Shown piece by piece: positions 8,049 through 25,673 of a DNA stretch of 64,000 nucleotides. The position numbers and the translations under genes were made by a program. Under the pieces are notes generated by a model. That model made no database searches. It worked only from the letters and a program-made list of their open reading frames with translations, and was not told the DNA's origin. Each line of letters begins with the position of its first letter. The stretch's first letter is position 1. Where the stretch lies: the NCBI GenBank assembly GCA_036941025.1, contig JAYMNP010000001.1, positions 2,564,501 to 2,628,500 of the forward strand, in the 5' to 3' direction. This DNA is from Lachnospiraceae bacterium JLR.KK002. GTDB lineage: Bacteria > Bacillota > Clostridia > Lachnospirales > Lachnospiraceae.

Positions 8049-8076
8049 CGATTAAACAGGAGAATATGAATTGATA

Positions 8077-8085
8077 TGTTATAAT
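8077..8085 (+). promoter_or_regulatory. Extended -10 promoter of the 8.1-kb non-coding transcript
   Basis: TGTTATAAT lies 29 bases after the nrnA stop. The same element, with the same flanking AATATG/GATATG context, drives the toxin locus at 23949. No protein-coding gene follows it before the terminator at 8307-8356. Confidence 0.55.
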
Positions 8086-8356
8086 GCTTATGTTGTCCAG
8101 ACAGGCATGACAAAAGCAACAAATATCCTGGTGGACGCTTTACCACTACAAGAAAGAATCCTGCTTTGCAGGATTCTCCGCCTGCGGCGGGTCGCTTTGC
8201 GACAGATTTCATACCCGCCGCAGTGCGATAAGAGCTTTTTTATTCTATAGGAAAGATACTTTCACACGTTAGCGTGACAAGGTCTTTCCTAATAGAATAA
8301 AAAGAAAAGAAGAATCCCTCGACTGTACGCCACTACAGTCGGGGGATTCGTTCTTT
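8086..8356 (+). ncRNA. Candidate structured RNA / relic of a type I toxin locus
   Basis: The stretch starts like the 24.0-kb toxin locus and keeps the 3' tail of the toxin gene: GACAAAAGCAAC at about 8109, then CCTGGTGGACGCTTTACCACTA. It lacks the ribosome site and the hydrophobic part of the ORF. Between that tail and the shared terminator lies a 155-nt stretch of three further hairpins. These are GAATCCTGC/GCAGGATTC (8156-8176), CTGCGGCGGGT/ACCCGCCGCAG (8182-8223) and a roughly 22-bp arm pair at 8235-8256 and 8283-8304. The final hairpin is the terminator. Whether this RNA is made or has a function is unknown. Confidence 0.5.
8307..8356. terminator. Terminator shared with the toxin locus
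   Basis: AAGAAGAATCCC and GGGATTCGTTCTT with inner pairs CGACTGTA/TACAGTCG form a long stem. Its counterpart at 24133-24182 has the same outer arms but a changed loop-proximal part, which supports conservation of the structure. Confidence 0.75.
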
Positions 8357-8394
8357 GCCTGCATGGAATTCTCCACATTTCTTTGCCTGTTGGC

Positions 8395-8423
8395 ATTATA
8401 GCATATGCAAATTTAAATTACAA
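8395..8423 (-). promoter_or_regulatory. Antisense promoter of the relic toxin locus
   Basis: Read on the minus strand this is TTGTAA, a 17-base spacer, then TATAAT. The -10 context GCATATGCTATAATGCCA is identical to that of the antisense promoter at 24221-24249. It points into the terminator and the non-coding transcript. Confidence 0.7.
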
Positions 8424-18874: not shown

Positions 18875-19340
18875 CTACATCTCAGTATCATAGCGGTCAT
18901 ATAACAGTTCTGATTTCATTCTGGCCCACATGCTTTCACAGCGGGCATTATCATGGCATCTTCCACCCGCGCTGTTCATGCTTTGTCGGATGCCATATTG
19001 ATTGATTGCGTCCCGATAAAGCCGGCTGGTGTACTGGCTTCCCCTGTCACTGTGGATAATTGCTCCGCGGATGCCTGGATACGCTTCCGCCGCGTTTTTC
19101 AATGTCCGCACACATAACGGAGCTTTCATGTTTGTATCCATTGCCAGGCCAACCACGCTGGAATCGAAGCAGTCGAAAACAGCGGAAACATACAGCTTTC
19201 CATCGCTGGCTTTGATCTCTGTTATGTCTGTTACGCACTTGGACAGCGGTTCCTCTGACTTGAAATCACGTTTTAACAGATCTTCTGATTTCCGGGCTTC
19301 CCGGTCTGCTTTCGTGATTCCGTTTGGTTTACGCCTGGGA
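18875..19340 (-). pseudogene. IS3-family transposase orfB fragment (copy A)
   Basis: The frame covers the middle of an IS3 orfB: ITKADREARKSEDLLKRDFK, CVTDITEIKASDGKLYVSA (first catalytic Asp), HSDRGSQYTSRLYRDA (second Asp) and NARCESMWARMKSELLYDRY (Glu). It stops at RYDTEM, about 35 residues short of the full ending. The 5' third is missing, cut at the left end of the complete copy B next door. It is close to copy B in sequence but not identical. Confidence 0.85.
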
Positions 19341-19388
19341 TGATTTTGTCAAGATTAGTTGACACATTTTCCTCAAGGATTTTGTATC

Positions 19389-20297
19389 CTATGCTGCTTC
19401 TTTCAGGGAATCATAGTATCGCTGCCGTTTTATCATGGGAGGAAGGCCTCCATTAGAGGAACAGATCCTCCGGTTATTCCAATAGCTGATGAAATATCTC
19501 CAGATCAGGGTTTTCAGTTCATCCGTGCTCATCTTCTCTGTATCGTAACGGTCATAGAGTAGTTCAGATTTCATTCTGGCCCACATGCTCTCGCAGCGGG
19601 CGTTATCATGGCATCTGCCGCCTGCACTGTTCATGCTCTGCCGTATGCCATACTTCCGGATTACATCCCGGTAAAGCTGGCTCGTGTACTGGCTTCCCCT
19701 GTCACTGTGGATAATTGCCCCATGGATGTCCGGATATGTCTTCGCCGCGTTTTCCAGTGTCCGCGCACATAATGGAGCTTTCATATTAGTATCCATCGCC
19801 AGTCCAACCACGCTGGAATCGAAGCAGTCAAAAACAGCCGAAACATACAGCTTTCCATCGCTGGCTTTGATCTCTGTTATGTCTGTTACACACTTGACCA
19901 GCGGCTTCTCTGACTTAAAATCACGTTTTAACAGATCTTCTGATTTCCGGGCTTGCCGATCCGCTTTCGTGATTCCGTTTGGTTTGCGCCTGGGATGGTG
20001 GCTGATGCCGATATCCTCCATGACACGGTAAACAGTACGTTCGCTGGGAATATCCACATTTTCAGGCTGTTTTAACATTAATGCCTGATACATACGGATC
20101 CGGCCGTAGGTGTCATTACAATCATCTTCCTCAAGGATTTCCATCATGGCGTCTGCCAGGGGCTGATACTTCCATGGGCGGTCTTTATTTGCAAGGTACT
20201 GGTAGAATCCCTGCCTGCTGACATGAAGGGTTCTACAGTAAAAGAAGATATCCCCTTTTAATTTGCCGTCTTTGGTTTTAAGAGCAATGAACTTCAT
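19389..20297 (-). CDS. IS3-family transposase OrfB
   Basis: A 302-residue DDE transposase catalytic subunit with an HTH_21-like N-terminus (KLKGDIFFYCRTLHVSRQGFYQYL). The catalytic Asp are in CVTDITEIK and HSDRGSQYTS and the Glu is in NARCESMWARMKSE. The ending FISYWNNRRICSSNGGLPP is the normal IS3 ending. The ATG overlaps the stop of orfA by 4 bases, and a run of A residues just upstream could allow the -1 frameshift used by the family to make the fused OrfAB. Confidence 0.93.
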   Translation of the reverse strand: MKFIALKTKDGKLKGDIFFYCRTLHVSRQGFYQYLANKDRPWKYQPLADAMMEILEEDDCNDTYGRIRMYQALMLKQPENVDIPSERTVYRVMEDIGISHHPRRKPNGITKADRQARKSEDLLKRDFKSEKPLVKCVTDITEIKASDGKLYVSAVFDCFDSSVVGLAMDTNMKAPLCARTLENAAKTYPDIHGAIIHSDRGSQYTSQLYRDVIRKYGIRQSMNSAGGRCHDNARCESMWARMKSELLYDRYDTEKMSTDELKTLIWRYFISYWNNRRICSSNGGLPPMIKRQRYYDSLKEAA

Positions 20298-20632
20298 TCT
20301 TTCGTTTTTGCTGACCTCAGACGGCTCGCGGCGAAAAAAGCGCTGGCTTCCTCCAGAAAGTCATTTTCCTTCTTCAAACGGCGGATTTCTTTTTCCTGTT
20401 CCTTAACCAGCTGGCGGAGCTGAAGAAGTTCCTGGTTAAGGGTCATGGCGCTTTGCGGAGTTTGTGAACCTGCCCCAAGGTCGAGGCTGCCAGGGCGGTT
20501 GGCCCGTACCCAGCCATACATGGTATTCTTTGGAACCCCCAGTTCTTTAGCGGCCTTTGCTTGTCCGATTTCCTTTGCCAGTTTCACTGCCTGTACTTTG
20601 TATTCATGGTCGTATTGCCTGTTTTCTGCCAT
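20294..20632 (-). CDS. IS3-family transposase OrfA
   Basis: A 112-residue DNA-binding subunit with a helix-turn-helix (YKVQAVKLAKEIGQAKAAKE... VPKNTMYGWV) and a C-terminal leucine-zipper-like coiled coil (LLQLRQLVKEQEKEIRRLKKEN). AAGGAGTGAAC lies upstream of the ATG. It binds the inverted repeats and pairs with OrfB. Confidence 0.92.
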   Translation of the reverse strand: MAENRQYDHEYKVQAVKLAKEIGQAKAAKELGVPKNTMYGWVRANRPGSLDLGAGSQTPQSAMTLNQELLQLRQLVKEQEKEIRRLKKENDFLEEASAFFAASRLRSAKTKE

Positions 20633-20696
20633 TTTTGTTCACTCCTTATCCTCTTGATTATATCTCAAATCCTTGAGAATGGGCTGTCAACTTTTT

Positions 20697-21257
20697 TTAT
20701 ACCACATCATTGTCAAGGGTTCGTTTACATAATACCGCTTTCATATTTGTATCCATCGCCAGCCCGAGGACTGCAGCATCATAGCAGTCAAATATGGCAG
20801 ATACATAAAGTTTTCCGTCTTTTGCCTTGATTTCGGTTATGTCCGTGACGCATTTTTTCAGTGGCTCTGCAGATTTGAAATCCCGTTTCAGCAGGTCATC
20901 CGATTTGCGTGCTTCACGGTCAGCTTTGGTAATTCCGTTCGGTTTGCGTTTCGGGCGGTGGCTGAGTCCGGTTTCCTTCATGATGCGGTAAACGGTTCTT
21001 TCGCCGGGAATGCGGACTCCTTCCGGCTGTTTCAGAAGAAGCGCCTGATACATACGGATTCTTCCGCAGGCATCGTTGCATTCATCCTCTGATACGATTG
21101 TCCGCATGGCATCAGCTAAAGCCTGATATTTCCACGGGCGGTCTTTGTTTGCCAGATATTTATAAAACCCCTGCCGTGTTACTTTTAACATCCGGCAGTA
21201 AAAAGAAATCTTCCCCTTGATAACGCCGTCCTCGGTTTTTATAGCAATGAACATCAT
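20697..21257 (-). pseudogene. IS3-family OrfB, 3'-truncated (copy C)
   Basis: 186 residues of an IS3 OrfB: MMFIAIKTEDGVIKGKISFYC, then RRKPNGITKADREARK-type and CVTDITEIKAKDGKLYVSA, then the frame ends in DNDVV. Only the first catalytic Asp is present; the second Asp and the Glu are gone, so it cannot be active alone. Confidence 0.88.
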
Positions 21258-21595
21258 TCTCTGCCTTTTACAGACTTCCGACGGCTGGCGGCGAAAAAAG
21301 CGCTTGCTTCCTCAAGAAATTCATTTTCCTCTTTCAGACGGCGGATTTCTTTTTCCTGATCCCTGACCTGTCTGCGTAGAACTGTCAGTTCCTCTGCGAG
21401 ACTCATGGCTGTCTGGGGCGTATGGGAACCAGGGCCGGCATCCAGCCGTCCTTCCCTGGCTGCTTTTGTCCATGCGTACATGGTATTTTCGGGAATTCCT
21501 AATTCAGCAGCCGCTTTTGCACCGCCGATTTCTTTTGCCAGTTTCACGGCCTGGATTTTGAAATCCATGTCGTATTTCCTTTGTTTTTTTGCCAT
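21254..21595 (-). CDS. IS3-family OrfA (copy C)
   Basis: An intact 113-residue OrfA (MAKKQRKYDMDFKIQAVKLA...) with helix-turn-helix and coiled coil. It is preceded by GGAGG and overlaps its truncated orfB by 4 bases. It may still be translated, but the element it serves is incomplete. Confidence 0.88.
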   Translation of the reverse strand: MAKKQRKYDMDFKIQAVKLAKEIGGAKAAAELGIPENTMYAWTKAAREGRLDAGPGSHTPQTAMSLAEELTVLRRQVRDQEKEIRRLKEENEFLEEASAFFAASRRKSVKGRE

Positions 21596-21662
21596 TGTAG
21601 TTGCCTCCTTATTTCTCTTTGATTATACATCAAATCCTTGAGTATAAGATGTCAACTAAAAT

Positions 21663-22333
21663 GATACAACATCATTTATGATTTGCCGCCACAGCGGACG
21701 GGAAAAAGAGGACGTCCTGCAACGCATGGCGACAGGCTCTCCATCCAGGATGATTTTACTCTGTCTGATGAAAAAATTGGAGGCTATTACATGGCTGTGC
21801 GCCGTGTCCTTACAAACATTTTTGGCAAAAGGACAGTCTTGGCATATGTTACATCAGCGGACAAGGAAAATGGTGGCAGGCGTTTATATTTCAGCACAGT
21901 TTTTCCAGAACAGCTGCAAATATTCTGTGCCTGGCAGGAAAAATCCCCACTGAATCAGACAGGAAGCAGCCGTATGCAGTTTATACCTCTGATGCTTTAT
22001 GCTTTTCGGTGGAACATCGAAGTTAGTTATTACGAACAGAAAACCTTCTGGTCATTATGCAGCTACATGGTGCGGAGCCGCAAAGGAATAGAAATGCTTG
22101 TCAATCTAATCAACATAGCGTATTGTGCAATGAAACTTTTGCCGTATCAGGACAAGACGTTTTCCAAATACCAGACAGAAAGCGTCCAGGAATTTCGTTT
22201 CGTACTGAGCGAACAAATTCGCCAGCAGGTATTTTATTCCATTTTCGTGAAAAAAGCCGAAACACACATAAAATCAAAAGCTATCATTAAGGTTTTAAAA
22301 CAACTGATTCAGCATCAGGGATATTATTTATAA
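21663..22333 (+). pseudogene. IS4-family transposase fragment
   Basis: About 220 C-terminal residues of a DDE transposase. The segment YAFRWNIEVSYYEQK fits the Y-(2)-R-(3)-E-(6)-K signature of the IS4 family exactly. The N-terminal half with both catalytic Asp is absent, and the left break is at the end of IS3 copy C. A further degraded relative of the same element is at 56.35-56.56 kb (LCSYMVRSRKGIEMLVNL in both). Confidence 0.82.
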
Positions 22334-22995
22334 AGTTGTAAAGTGGTGTAAGCATAACAGAAATGCCCGTTAATGTACATCTGCTGAATGGCTGGATTGG
22401 CGGCAGCATGGGAAGGCATGGAGCCGTAGGCGGCTTTATAAGGGTCAAAGGAATCGTCCATCCCTTTTGCTTTTTTGAAGGCTTTCAGCTGTTTGATGAT
22501 ACGGTTGGCATATTTGGGATTGTTTTCTGTAACCCATGCCTCAATGCCGGAGGTGTCAAAGAGAAGCATGGAAGCTTTCTGTGTATCAATACAATGGCAG
22601 ATCGGTTCGGTCAAGTCAACAAGATGATCGAACATGGATTGTAAGTCCGATAAAAAATCCTGTTTGAACCGGGTGAATTTAGAGGCATCCGGGACAACAT
22701 CAAACCCACAGAAGTCTCGCAGTTCCTGGGAGTATTTCAGGAATATGATCAGCAGGGATGTTGTTGGGATTGAGAAGATAAGCTGTAATAACAGAGCCCT
22801 GAGCATTGGATAAAGCAGATGCTTACGGGGCCTGCCAGTGGCAGCATGGAAATGAGAAATAAAGGACACTGGGACAATTTCATCTAAGTTGATGGTATTT
22901 TCGAGAAGTGCAAGGAACTGATATTTATCATTATCAAATTTATTTTGGCAATCGGTAAAAATATCTGCCAAAGAGAGCTGTTTATGTGTTATCAT
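22324..22995 (-). pseudogene. IS1182/IS5-like transposase, 3'-truncated
   Basis: MITHKQLSLADIFTDCQNKF... is the N-terminal 213 or so residues of a DDE transposase. It is nearly identical to the one starting at 63529. ASMLLFDTSGIEAWVTE holds the first catalytic Asp. The frame breaks off after QQMYINGHFCYAYTT where it meets the IS4 fragment. The upstream terminal region of the element is intact up to about 23136 (GCGAAACACCAGAACCCAC on the minus strand). IS1182 versus another IS5-like group is not certain. Confidence 0.8.
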
Positions 22996-23168
22996 ATAGA
23001 TACGACTCCTTTACTGGTGGATATGGATAATTGTTACTGGAGATTTCAATTATACCACAGACCAGTGAGGAGTTGTTTTATTTTGTAACAAAGAGAATCC
23101 CGTATTTATGTGGGTTCTGGTGTTTCGCAAATGCCTATTTACAAAGTATGAAGAAAGGAATATCTGAT

Positions 23169-23759
23169 ATGGAAAAAAGCAAAACCCGGAAACTGTTGTA
23201 TGAGGGGCTAAATCATGACGAAATCGAACTGTTGGAGTGGTACCATGCAAATCCATTGTCCGTGTATATTGAAATCGCTTTAATAATAATGGCTGACATT
23301 GAGATAATTACGGAAGAACAGCGCAGGGAGTATAAGGCACGGGTGGCGGAGAATGCGGGCAAATTGAGGGAGCTTCTGCTGAAAAAGGAAGATGGCGCCA
23401 TAACGAATAAGGACAGACTGAAAGACTTTCTGTTTGACATTATGAATAAGTATGATGGGATGTTTGCAGACATATCACTGGACGATGAAACAGACACAAT
23501 TTTCGTAAATACCGTAGACGGTGGGCGCTTCACTGTTACCGTCAGCCCTGTGACTGCGGACAAAGCCCTCCTGAAACTGTGGGCAAAGAAGAATCCGAAA
23601 CTGATGTCCCTTGCACTCGGCGTGCTGAATATGAGGAGTTTAGGCGCATTTACGGAAGAAGAAGCAAATGGGTATCTGTCGTCTATCCTTGAAAGGGCTG
23701 ATAACTCCGGTATTGAGAGTTTAAAATTTTTATCCGGAATGAATAAGACAAATCCATGA
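23169..23759 (+). CDS. Unknown 196-residue protein, copy 1
   Basis: MEKSKTRKLLYEGLNHDEIELLEWYHANPLS... is soluble, helical and mixed-charge, with no signal peptide, membrane segment or motif I recognise. The ATG at 23169 follows GAAAGGA. It differs from the copy at 25083 at only four nucleotides over 591, and all four change the residue (A/V, D/N, K/E, K/E). The 3' flank is also shared for about 65 bases. The 5' flank is not; here it is the end of the IS1182-like element. A hairpin at 23855-23886 follows the gene. No function is proposed. Confidence 0.75.
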   Translation: MEKSKTRKLLYEGLNHDEIELLEWYHANPLSVYIEIALIIMADIEIITEEQRREYKARVAENAGKLRELLLKKEDGAITNKDRLKDFLFDIMNKYDGMFADISLDDETDTIFVNTVDGGRFTVTVSPVTADKALLKLWAKKNPKLMSLALGVLNMRSLGAFTEEEANGYLSSILERADNSGIESLKFLSGMNKTNP

Positions 23760-23948: not shown

Positions 23949-23957
23949 TGTTATAAT
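23949..23957 (+). promoter_or_regulatory. Promoter of the small hydrophobic toxin
   Basis: TGTTATAAT, an extended -10, precedes the toxin ribosome site by about 30 bases. The leader between them can fold through GTTGC/GCAAC. The relic locus at 8077 keeps the same element. Confidence 0.6.
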
Positions 23958-24003
23958 TTTTTTGTTGCCCACCGATACCCGCAACAGGGAGGAGGTGTCA
24001 GCG

Positions 24004-24102
24004 TTGGAATTTTTTATATCTTTTTTAGTTGCCGTTCTGGGCGGTGTAACTTGCCACTACATCATCAAATGGTTAGACGGTGACGACAAAGGCAACGACT
24101 AG
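24004..24102 (+). CDS. Small hydrophobic type I toxin-like peptide (32 aa)
   Basis: TTG at 24004 is preceded by GGAGGAGGTG at 23988-23997. The peptide starts MEFFISFLVAVLGGV, continues TCHYIIKWL and ends in the charged tail DGDDKGND. One membrane helix with a polar tail, a stable downstream hairpin and an opposing promoter are the hallmarks of type I toxin-antitoxin loci (TxpA, Fst and BsrG types). A decayed copy with the same promoter, tail and antisense promoter exists at 8.1 kb. Toxicity is inferred, not shown; the family is not one I can name. Confidence 0.65.
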   Translation: MEFFISFLVAVLGGVTCHYIIKWLDGDDKGND

Positions 24103-24132
24103 CCTGGTGGGTGCTTTGCCACTATAAAAGTA

Positions 24133-24182
24133 AAGAAGAATCCCTCAACTGTGTTACCGCACGGTTGGGGGATTCGCTTCTT
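24133..24182. terminator. Shared terminator hairpin of the toxin locus
   Basis: AAGAAGAATCCCTCAAC pairs with GTTGGGGGATTCGCTTCTT around a GC-containing loop. The stem lies between the toxin stop and the opposing promoter. It could end the toxin mRNA and, read in reverse with CTTTACTTTTATAG following, the antisense RNA as well. Confidence 0.75.
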
Positions 24183-24220
24183 CGTCAACGTTGGACTTTT
24201 TATATCTTTTGCCTAATGGC

Positions 24221-24249
24221 ATTATAGCATATGCAGAAATGTTTTTCAA
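24221..24249 (-). promoter_or_regulatory. Antisense RNA promoter of the toxin locus
   Basis: Read on the minus strand this is TTGAAA, exactly 17 bases, then TATAAT. A transcript from it would start near 24214 and run antisense to the toxin mRNA 3' end, giving an RNA of roughly 80-110 nt. The -10 neighbourhood is identical to that at 8395-8423. Confidence 0.72.
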
Positions 24250-24492: not shown

Positions 24493-24669
24493 TTAATTAT
24501 CCTCTTTTTTCTCAGTATTCGCTATCGCATATTCAATACATTGGATAACAACTTTATTAAATGACATTTGATTTTCATCAGCCAGTGTTTGAACTTTATC
24601 TATTAAATCTTTAGGCAAACGCAATGATTTGTTCTCATATTCTGTGTATTCTCTTTTTAGTATAAACAT
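24493..24669 (-). CDS. Ribbon-helix-helix DNA-binding protein (58 aa)
   Basis: MFILKREYTEYENKSLRLPKDLIDKV... has the strand KSLRLPKDL followed by two helices (IDKVQTLADENQMSFNKVVIQCIEYAI), which is the Arc/MetJ fold. The ATG at 24669 follows AGAGGTGAT. It is likely a small repressor or antitoxin-like protein. A degraded tandem duplicate lies immediately upstream (24828-24983). No toxin gene of the usual kind is coupled to it. Confidence 0.75.
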   Translation of the reverse strand: MFILKREYTEYENKSLRLPKDLIDKVQTLADENQMSFNKVVIQCIEYAIANTEKKEDN

Positions 24670-24827
24670 TTTTATCACCTCTTATTTTTTATTGTAATAT
24701 AAAGTACAGTGTGATGATATGTTATAAAAATACTATATTTTATAATAATATTTTCATTATTTATAATAATCTTATGGGTAAAATATATTAATTCATAAAT
24801 ATAGATTAATGACTATTTTTTCCATAT

Positions 24828-24983
24828 TTTTTTAAGCATATTCAATACATTTGATAACAACTTTACTAAATGACATTTGGTTTTCATCTGCTAATACCTG
24901 AACTTTATTTATTAAATCTTTAAGCAAACGCAACGATTCGTTTTCATATTCTATGTATTCTTTTTTTCAATTTAAACATTTTT
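24828..24983 (-). pseudogene. Degraded duplicate of the ribbon-helix-helix gene
   Basis: The sequence parallels 24493-24669 base by base over most of its length (for example ATTCAATACATTTGATAACA against ATTCAATACATTGGATAACA). The reading frame is broken by stops and small indels. The promoter-side flank (TTTTATTGTAATATA) is duplicated as well, so the event copied the gene with its control region. Confidence 0.75.
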
Positions 24984-25082
24984 AATTCCTTTTATTGTAA
25001 TATATACTATGCTGTGATAAAATATTATATATATAATATGTTTTATAATATTCTATATATTACAACGAAGGGAAATAGTAAT

Positions 25083-25673
25083 ATGGAAAAAAGCAAAACC
25101 CGGAAACTGTTGTATGAGGGGCTAAATCATGACGAAATCGAACTGTTGGAGTGGTACCATGTAAATCCATTGTCCGTGTATATTGAAATCGCTTTAATAA
25201 TAATGGCTGACATTGAGATAATTACGGAAGAACAGCGCAGGGAGTATAAGGCACGGGTGGCGGAGAATGCGGGCAAATTGAGGGAGCTTCTGCTGAAAAA
25301 GGAAGATGGCGCCATAACGAATAAGGACAGACTGAAAGACTTTCTGTTTGACATTATGAATAAGTATGATGGGATGTTTGCAGACATATCACTGAACGAT
25401 GAAACAGACACAATTTTCGTAAATACCGTAGACGGTGGGCGCTTCACTGTTACCGTCAGCCCTGTGACTGCGGACAAAGCCCTCCTGGAACTGTGGGCAA
25501 AGAAGAATCCGAAACTGATGTCCCTTGCACTCGGCGTGCTGAATATGAGGAGTTTAGGCGCATTTACGGAAGAAGAAGCAAATGGGTATCTGTCGTCTAT
25601 CCTTGAAAGGGCTGATAACTCCGGTATTGAGAGTTTAAAATTTTTATCCGGAATGAATGAGACAAATCCATGA
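25083..25673 (+). CDS. Unknown 196-residue protein, copy 2
   Basis: Near-identical twin of the gene at 23169 (four substitutions, all amino-acid changing). The ATG at 25083 follows GAAGGGA. Its 5' flank is very AT-rich and derives from the ribbon-helix-helix duplication; TATAAT-like boxes are abundant there. The shared 3' flank leads into the right island repeat at 25710. Two nearly identical copies within 2 kb imply a recent duplication or a conversion event. Confidence 0.75.
   Translation: MEKSKTRKLLYEGLNHDEIELLEWYHVNPLSVYIEIALIIMADIEIITEEQRREYKARVAENAGKLRELLLKKEDGAITNKDRLKDFLFDIMNKYDGMFADISLNDETDTIFVNTVDGGRFTVTVSPVTADKALLELWAKKNPKLMSLALGVLNMRSLGAFTEEEANGYLSSILERADNSGIESLKFLSGMNETNP

What the first reader, a model, noticed from the sequence alone, without database searches (positions are those of the whole stretch)
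23949..24249. Unnamed type I toxin-antitoxin-like locus with a 32-residue membrane peptide
A TTG-started ORF with an excellent ribosome site encodes one membrane helix plus a charged tail (MEFFISFLVAVLGGV...DGDDKGND). An extended -10 stands upstream, a long hairpin downstream, and a TTGAAA-17-TATAAT promoter points back at it from the other side. This is the architecture of type I toxin-antitoxin pairs, and the ORF is short enough to escape ordinary annotation. A second locus at 8.1 kb keeps the promoter, toxin tail, terminator and antisense promoter, so the unit is a recurring module.
Basis: partly seen in the sequence, partly recalled or inferred. Interest (0 to 1): 0.75.

Follow-up and report, generated by a model that had tools for sequence, protein, structure and literature searches.

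The report
Clostridial Fst/par-like RNA-silenced membrane toxin module
This gut bacterium carries a tiny gene for a membrane peptide that looks like a self-toxin, and beside it what looks like a gene for a small RNA that mirrors the start of the toxin gene so as to silence it; many relatives in gut bacteria, plasmids and a few filamentous phages keep the same matched design, which marks it as a little-recognised branch of a known kind of toxin-antitoxin system.

Summary
The predicted antisense RNA can thus pair with the toxin start as well as with the shared terminator, as in the Enterococcus par/Fst system. In 91 of 101 unique relatives the toxin start recurs in the locus's own antisense gene (mean score 39.5, against 20.8 with other loci's), and mismatches favour those that keep a G-U pair. 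The peptide has the Fst signature (one helix, Trp, charged tail) but no Pfam or NCBIfam Fst cut-off is passed; the Rfam similarity to pneumococcal F66 RNA is also below threshold. Matches occur in 24 of 29 genomes of the genus and 82 of 392 of the order, on three inovirus records and on small plasmids. The 8.1-kb locus is a toxin-less remnant whose antisense repeat fits a toxin of sibling genomes. Such solitary antitoxin elements are common (24 of 85; 3 at contig ends), which is open to decay or to anti-addiction. Transcription and toxicity are untested. I call it a clostridial variant of a known kind.

The parts
23952..23957 (+). -10 of the toxin promoter (TGTTATAAT, extended -10); predicted RNA I start near 23964
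   Evidence: sequence; best hexamer in a 65-nt upstream range is 6/6 in 62 and 5/6 in 32 of 101 relatives (no chance control run)
23964..24188 (+). predicted toxin mRNA (RNA I), about 225 nt
   Evidence: inferred from promoter and hairpin; Rfam SpF66 model matches 23964-24185 over its full length, below cut-off
23970..23997 (+). 5' stem-loop CACC/GGUG that would cover the Shine-Dalgarno region
   Evidence: fold of the window; three of these four pairs are in the consensus of 30 relatives
24004..24102 (+). toxin ORF, TTG start, 32 aa: one hydrophobic helix, KWLD, charged tail
23997..24029 (+). DR1: direct repeat covering the toxin start region
24138..24175 (.). shared terminator hairpin between the convergent transcripts
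   Evidence: stem covaries in 30 relatives
24184..24210 (+). DR2: copy of the toxin start; its complement is the 5' part of the antisense RNA
24128..24214 (-). predicted antitoxin RNA (RNA II), about 87 nt, from about 24214 down to about 24128
   Evidence: inferred from promoter and hairpin
24221..24249 (-). antisense promoter TTGAAA-17-TATAAT, with TG before the -10
   Evidence: perfect antisense -10 in 77 of 91 relatives against 5 of 91 for the reversed hexamer
8075..8423 (+). toxin-less remnant: promoter stub, toxin tail, ~155-bp dispersed repeat (about 8147-8304), terminator 8312-8349, DR2 about 8358-8384, antisense promoter 8395-8423 (-)

Best explanation
It is a type I toxin-antitoxin module that works like par/Fst. 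The plus-strand mRNA (RNA I, about 225 nt) encodes a 32-residue single-helix membrane peptide that would harm the cell if made in excess. A convergent minus-strand RNA (RNA II, about 87 nt) carries at its 5' end the complement of the toxin's start region and at its 3' end the complementary terminator loop. Contact at the loops and then pairing over DR1 would cover the start codon and block translation, while a 5' stem-loop holds the Shine-Dalgarno region shut meanwhile. If the element is lost, or RNA II falls, leftover RNA I would be translated. On plasmids and phages this would stabilise the element; chromosomal copies are probably residents or remnants of such elements. Shown: sequence, conservation, cognate repeat pairing. 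Inferred: transcription, pairing order, toxicity, role.
For: Own-locus repeat of the toxin start in 91 of 101 unique units; 87 of 101 beat all 200 shuffles. Among the 91, the mean score is 39.5 for the own antisense gene against 20.8 with other loci's, realigned; the own one is best or tied-best in 71 of 91 (related loci share repeats). Mismatches that keep a G-U pair outnumber the mirror-image kind 141 to 18, and are 8.6% and 8.9% against 1.6% and 2.2% per base after allowing for composition. Perfect antisense -10 in 77 of 91 against 5 of 91 for the reversed hexamer; a stem of 10 bp or more in 89 of 91, with compensatory changes. Predicted duplex energy is best for the cognate pair at each of the three complete loci of this genome. 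The own-locus repeat is also in inovirus records and in 9 fetched plasmid loci. Helix-Trp-charged tail in all 104 unique peptides, partly by construction of the search. Sub-threshold full-length Rfam SpF66 match. 10 of the 20 weak PF13955 places listed (17 of 41 genomes, genus and order) coincide with matches of this family.
Against: No expression or toxicity data. Pfam Fst_toxin and NCBIfam Fst cut-offs are not met. 10 of 101 units lack a clear repeat, including two with identical peptides and no antitoxin parts (L004, L156). The hairpin has T-rich tails on both sides in only 42 of 91. RNAalifold found no common fold for the RNA II alignment. Some non-cognate pairs reach -33.1 kcal/mol, so specificity by this measure is not absolute. 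The window's membrane motif is AxxxG, not P/D/S/TxxxG. SpF66 matched only 4 of 7 further loci at E 0.05.
Confidence: 0.88

Rival explanations
1. A small membrane protein with a housekeeping or regulatory role, kept in check by an antisense RNA, not a toxin.
For: Toxicity is not shown; chromosomal Fst homologues have no established role (PMC7472228).
Against: Patchy distribution with varied copy number (0-8 matches per genome in 29 genomes), presence on phage and plasmid records, frequent loss of the peptide with the antisense element kept: the pattern of an addiction module.
Confidence: 0.07
2. A regulatory RNA locus only: the ORF is incidental and the conserved thing is an RNA pair or a repeat element.
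For: 24 of 85 antisense-promoter elements have no toxin match beside them.
Against: Peptides of about 32 codons (5th-95th percentile 28-35) with a start codon and ribosome site are kept although the start-region DNA differs between loci; W, L and D invariant in 56 members (partly by construction of the search).
Confidence: 0.03
3. The module is here decayed and silent: a leftover of a mobile element amid insertion sequences.
For: Transposase-rich, duplicated surroundings; many relatives are partial.
Against: All parts at 24 kb are intact, and its toxin start pairs best with its own antitoxin (-38.4 kcal/mol against -29.1 or weaker for the other four tested).
Confidence: 0.15

Closest known systems
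par of plasmid pAD1 (Fst / RNA I / RNA II), Enterococcus faecalis
   Same: Convergent promoters, shared terminator, direct repeats at the 5' ends of both RNAs covering the toxin start, 5' stem over the Shine-Dalgarno sequence, RNA I about 230 nt, ~33-aa peptide with helix and charged tail (PMC7472228, sections read).
   Different: RNA II predicted about 87 nt against about 40; a nearly continuous ~27-30-nt repeat, often with a mismatch or indel in the middle; AxxxG/TxxxG/SxxxG instead of PxxxG; below the PF13955 and NF033608 cut-offs.
Streptococcus pneumoniae F66 sRNA (Rfam RF02442), apparently an Fst-family locus
   Same: Full-length model match 1-239 to 23964-24185, E 1.6e-5 in a 321-base search, 29.8 bits; also L002, L005, L007, L008, i.e. 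4 of 7 further loci; its consensus, read by eye, carries a KWLDG frame.
   Different: Below the gathering score of 42 bits; different peptide N-terminal part.
Clostridioides difficile type I TA pairs (NCBIfam NF047374)
   Same: Clostridial type I systems with small membrane toxins (PMC6563280, passages); 20 of 56 members hit the model weakly, best E 2.5e-4.
   Different: Hits seen are far below the cut-off of 60 bits; recalled, not tested: their antitoxins are not known to use a separate repeat of the toxin start.
Ldr/Rdl of E. coli
   Same: Peptide signature (helix, Trp, charged tail); 5 of 56 members hit PF13940 weakly.
   Different: Ldr regulation is hok/sok-like (PMC7472228), without the par repeats.

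Membership tests
par/Fst type I TA (Weaver) | convergent promoters | tested here: met
   window; relatives:
par/Fst type I TA (Weaver) | shared bidirectional terminator | tested here: met
   stem >=10 bp in 89 of 91, covarying; but T-rich tails on both sides in only 42 of 91
par/Fst type I TA (Weaver) | direct repeats so that RNA II covers the toxin start | tested here: met
   91 of 101 units; shuffle, realigned other-locus and G-U tests
par/Fst type I TA (Weaver) | peptide with TM helix, Trp, charged C-terminus | tested here: met
   helix judged by eye; the search pattern contains the Trp, so partly by construction
par/Fst type I TA (Weaver) | P/D/S/TxxxG motif in the helix (said of the majority of toxins) | tested here: inconclusive
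   window is AxxxG; of 104 unique peptides 40 fit, 48 are AxxxG, 16 neither
par/Fst type I TA (Weaver) | 5' structure hiding the Shine-Dalgarno sequence | tested here: met
   (predictions only)
Pfam PF13955 / NCBIfam NF033608 (Fst toxin models) | score over curated cut-off | tested here: not met
   PF13955 reached its cut-off in 0 of 398 phylum genomes, so it is a narrow model
Rfam RF02442 SpF66 | score over gathering threshold (42 bits) | tested here: not met
   29.8 bits; best relative 31 bits
NCBIfam NF047374 (C. difficile type I toxin) | score over cut-off (60 bits) | tested here: not met
   best E 2.5e-4 (21.4 bits); 20 of 56 members weak
type I TA in general | toxicity relieved by an antisense RNA | not testable with these tools
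   needs experiment

The most novel reading that the evidence does not exclude
Solitary antitoxin genes of this family act as RNA-based anti-addiction or vaccination loci. The chromosome keeps antisense genes, with promoter, repeat and terminator, that fit toxins absent beside them but present in sibling genomes or on viral contigs, so that elements carrying such toxins cannot addict or kill the cell on entry or loss. Recombination between DR1 and DR2 gives a second, inert end state, a solo-repeat scar. The genome studied has two solitary antitoxins whose best partners found lie in other genomes or viral contigs, though one of them may also cross-pair weakly with the resident 24-kb toxin.
Probability: 0.2. 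Interest if true: 0.7.

Novelty: new variant of a known kind. Interest (0 to 1): 0.5.

Why it matters
A review of clostridial type I systems (PMC6563280, passages) reports that a large earlier search found Fst-like sequences in only two clostridial species. The data here show a far more abundant par-like family in Lachnospiraceae and relatives: 434 loci from one narrow pattern (80 kept) and 24 of 29 genomes of one genus, also on Inoviridae records and small plasmids. The Pfam, NCBIfam and Rfam models tried do not reach it at cut-off. Because most loci carry a readable cognate code (DR1/DR2), the family offers a natural test of type I antitoxin specificity, of cross-protection between elements, and of whether solitary antitoxins are decay products or anti-addiction guards.

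Tried and rejected
Considered and rejected: plain intergenic transposon debris (ORF, repeat and both promoters are kept together in relatives); an Rfam-catalogued RNA (no match at gathering thresholds in the window); an Arc/CopG type II pair as the real unit (the ribbon-helix-helix-like ORF at 24493-24678 is a separate gene; in the listed matches those to the toxin unit end before it); the hairpin as a one-way terminator for the toxin only (the tail is more often U-rich on the antisense side, 62 of 91 against 35 of 91).

Led nowhere: Rfam hits other than SpF66 (snoRNA models, taken as chance); PDB sequence search with 56 members, no match; RNAalifold of RNA II, no common fold, perhaps because the 5' half differs by locus; exact-pattern search for the cognate toxin of the 8.1-kb antitoxin (0 of 29 genomes): the pattern was badly chosen, since alignment found a partner; a search for the DHH phosphoesterase, AsnRS and RecJ-like neighbours of the 8.1-kb site in 13 fetched stretches (no hit), so it is not shown that the sibling toxin sits at the same site. 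In the stretches held, the IMG/VR loci show no Zot or replication protein like those of the inoviruses found, so the inovirus link rests on three records, two of them near-identical. In one search one of four Fst_toxin loci was read in the wrong frame or strand and says nothing. My first partner-permutation control (90.4% identity against 53.2%) did not realign the permuted partners and so flatters the result; the realigned control is. Literature: the listings showed no paper that describes this family in Lachnospiraceae or on inoviruses; PMC2863291 and the 2010 Fozo paper are not held. No structure prediction was run.

Full report
What is there. At 23952-24249 lie an extended -10, an AGGAGGTG site, a 32-codon ORF starting with TTG (24004-24102), a long hairpin (24138-24175) and a strong minus-strand promoter. 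The plus-strand stretch 23959-24193 and the minus-strand stretch 24222-24097 fold better than shuffles (z -3.13 and -3.05).

The missing element. Reading the sequence shows that the toxin start region GTCAGCGTTGGAATTTTTTATATCTTTT (from 23997) recurs as GTCAACGTTGGACTTTTTATATCTTTT at 24184-24210, just downstream of the antisense promoter. The predicted antisense RNA thus begins with the complement of the toxin's start codon region. This is the design of par of plasmid pAD1 (PMC7472228: abstract and sections 1-2 read, other passages seen): convergent promoters, shared terminator, direct repeats DRa/DRb, and a 5' stem over the Shine-Dalgarno sequence.

Relatives. The genome has three more copies of the peptide. 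DNA similarity hit three Inoviridae records, two of them near-identical in Zot and replication protein, and one small mobilizable plasmid; tblastn with a sister peptide added three unannotated phage records. An alignment of seven members found 32 IMG/VR loci, 434 loci in genome contigs of which the best 80 were kept, matches in 24 of 29 genomes of the genus and in 82 of 392 of the order. A 56-member alignment (49 of 54 diverse units plus 7 plasmid peptides) matched 15 of 398 genomes drawn across the phylum. tblastn at a lenient E of 10 matched 410 plasmid records, 354 of them Enterococcus. Most of these were not checked; the eight I fetched in addition to the first plasmid all show an own-locus repeat, with scores 30-44; the two at 30, which are nearly the same locus, are weak against the shuffle tail of 32.4 at the 99.9th percentile.

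Cognate test. Of the 189 loci held then, 182 gave a profile match, 193 matches in all (the 7 without were weak Fst_toxin hits). The script kept 181 units with a usable start and stop, 104 of them unique and 101 with at least 200 nt downstream. A local repeat of the toxin start (score 30 or more) was present downstream in 91 of 101. 87 of 101 beat all 200 dinucleotide shuffles of their own downstream DNA, and 7 of 101 were reached by 5 or more shuffles. Over the 91 positives, chosen by having a repeat, the mean score is 39.5 for the own antisense gene and 20.8 (sd 4.6) for other loci's, realigned; 4.6% of the other pairs reach 30, and the own one is best or tied-best in 71 of 91, related loci sharing similar repeats. 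Repeat identity is 90.4%, against 53.2% with partners permuted but not realigned, a control that flatters. Mismatches are lopsided: 141 would keep a G-U pair between mRNA and antisense RNA, 18 are the mirror-image kind, and 81 are transversions. Per base the rates are 8.6% and 8.9% against 1.6% and 2.2%. This direction-specific tolerance, which the alignment scoring cannot produce, is what pairing between these two RNAs predicts. A perfect antisense -10 lies near the repeat in 77 of 91 and a 5-of-6 one in 13, against 5 of 91 perfect for the reversed hexamer. The best promoter spacer is 17 in 80 of 91, and a stem of 10 bp or more precedes in 89 of 91. The terminator stem, with compensatory changes, and three of the four CACC/GGUG pairs appear in the consensus of 30 relatives (of 47 picked by script). 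RNA II (32 of 47) gave no common fold.

Specificity in one genome. Predicted duplex energies are best for the cognate pair at the three complete loci (-38.4, -36.9 and -30.9 kcal/mol). Non-cognate pairs reach -29.1 within this genome and -33.1 in the whole table. A fourth toxin (G000:C1:357165) has no antitoxin parts and no good partner (-18.5 at best).

The 8.1-kb locus. It keeps a promoter stub, the toxin tail, the terminator, a repeat and the antisense promoter, but the toxin body is deleted, and a roughly 155-bp dispersed repeat lies inside. Its repeat does not fit the four toxins of its own genome by alignment (scores 14.5-19; 14-18 with a tighter slice), though the duplex with the 24-kb toxin still reaches -29.1. 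It fits a toxin of sibling genomes (score 47; -42.9 kcal/mol), whose own repeat is nearly identical.

Solitary antitoxins. A motif of the antisense promoter region occurs 85 times in the 29 genomes, in 21 of them, with no hit for the reversed pattern. 61 have a toxin match 71-122 nt upstream; 24, in 15 genomes, do not. Three of the 24 lie within 70 nt of a contig end, so their state is unknown, and two more within 260 nt. Of the 24, 23 were scored (the unscored one is the same-species copy of the 8.1-kb locus, identical over 277 bases). 18 of 23 fit the start of some known toxin at 34 or more, against 0.7% of single-base shuffles; the shuffles were scored against 104 unique starts and the real ones against 181 with duplicates, a small advantage. 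Of these 18, two are at contig ends and four look like DR1-DR2 fusions without terminator (L302, L305, L306 clearly, L301 probably), an expected product of recombination between the repeats. One further element (L300) has a decayed toxin remnant upstream. The remaining 15 keep a hairpin, repeat and promoter; 12 of the 15 reach 34, and L262, L303 and L304 do not. The second solitary antitoxin of this genome (L261) scores 38 with toxins on two IMG/VR contigs and in other genomes, but also 31 with the resident 24-kb toxin and 29 with L002, so it could cross-pair at home. Conversely 18 of 79 toxin matches had no element within 350 nt; some are at contig ends, others have a diverged promoter or no antitoxin. 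Toxin-first loss alone could produce this picture, because losing the antitoxin first would be harmful; whether the survivors protect the cell is open.

Names and membership. No Fst model cut-off is reached in the scans made. Weak matches among 56 members: Fst_toxin 2, Ldr_toxin 5, NCBIfam Fst 9 (best 5.4e-4), C. difficile type I toxin 20 (best 2.5e-4); unrelated small-protein models match as weakly (DUF2158 in 17 of 56, best 0.011), so these hits mean little alone. 10 of the 20 weak PF13955 places listed coincide with matches of this family. PF13955 is narrow: it passed its cut-off in none of 398 phylum genomes. In one of those genomes an Fst_toxin-like ORF with its own repeat lies about 500 bases from a peptide of the present family. 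The Rfam family SpF66 matches 23964-24185 over its full length but below its gathering score. F66 lies between SP2168 and SP2169 in TIGR4 (PMC3395615, passages), and the D39 annotation lists Fst-family type I pairs (PMC6212727, passages); that these are the same locus is my inference. So it works like par/Fst, and I describe it as a clostridial variant rather than filing it under the curated family.

Prior knowledge. The Fst review says that members exist in commensal Clostridia and on mobile elements. [quoted passage not shown] asparagiforme only (passages). The inovirus paper on Enterocloster does not contain the words antitoxin or addiction in its main text. Anti-addiction by chromosomal systems is an established idea (PMC12548467, passages).

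Limits. All statements on transcripts, toxicity and role are inferences. The relatives were found with patterns or profiles anchored on KWLD, so conservation of that motif is partly by construction. 

Noticed in passing
window 8147-8304: Dispersed repeat of about 155 bp (MITE-like) inside the 8.1-kb remnant; many copies, the long ones mostly 80-98% identical, in several same-genus genomes, and one further long copy in this genome.
   Followed up: partly
window 23031-23759 and 25014-25673: Two nearly identical ORFs of unknown function flank the module; between them an Arc/ribbon-helix-helix-like small protein (24493-24678, minus) and, by eye, a second partial copy near 24840.
   Followed up: no
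window 18875-22995: Cluster of transposase-like ORFs: by eye repeated copies of one two-ORF insertion sequence (IS3-like, a recalled label), plus one with a DUF772 domain.
   Followed up: no
L004 1498-1596 (G000:C1:357165) and L156: Toxin ORF of the same family without terminator, repeat or antisense promoter, shared by this genome and its same-species neighbour.
   Followed up: partly
L302, L305, L306 (L301 probably): Scars where the toxin start repeat is fused straight to the antisense promoter, as expected from recombination between DR1 and DR2.
   Followed up: partly
L005 4587-4727 and L006 2109-2459: Inovirus records annotate an ORF on the opposite strand over the toxin unit (hypothetical protein; DNA binding protein), perhaps mis-annotations.
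   Followed up: no
L202 (G687:C10): A peptide of this family and an Fst_toxin-like ORF with its own start repeat lie about 500 bases apart.
   Followed up: partly
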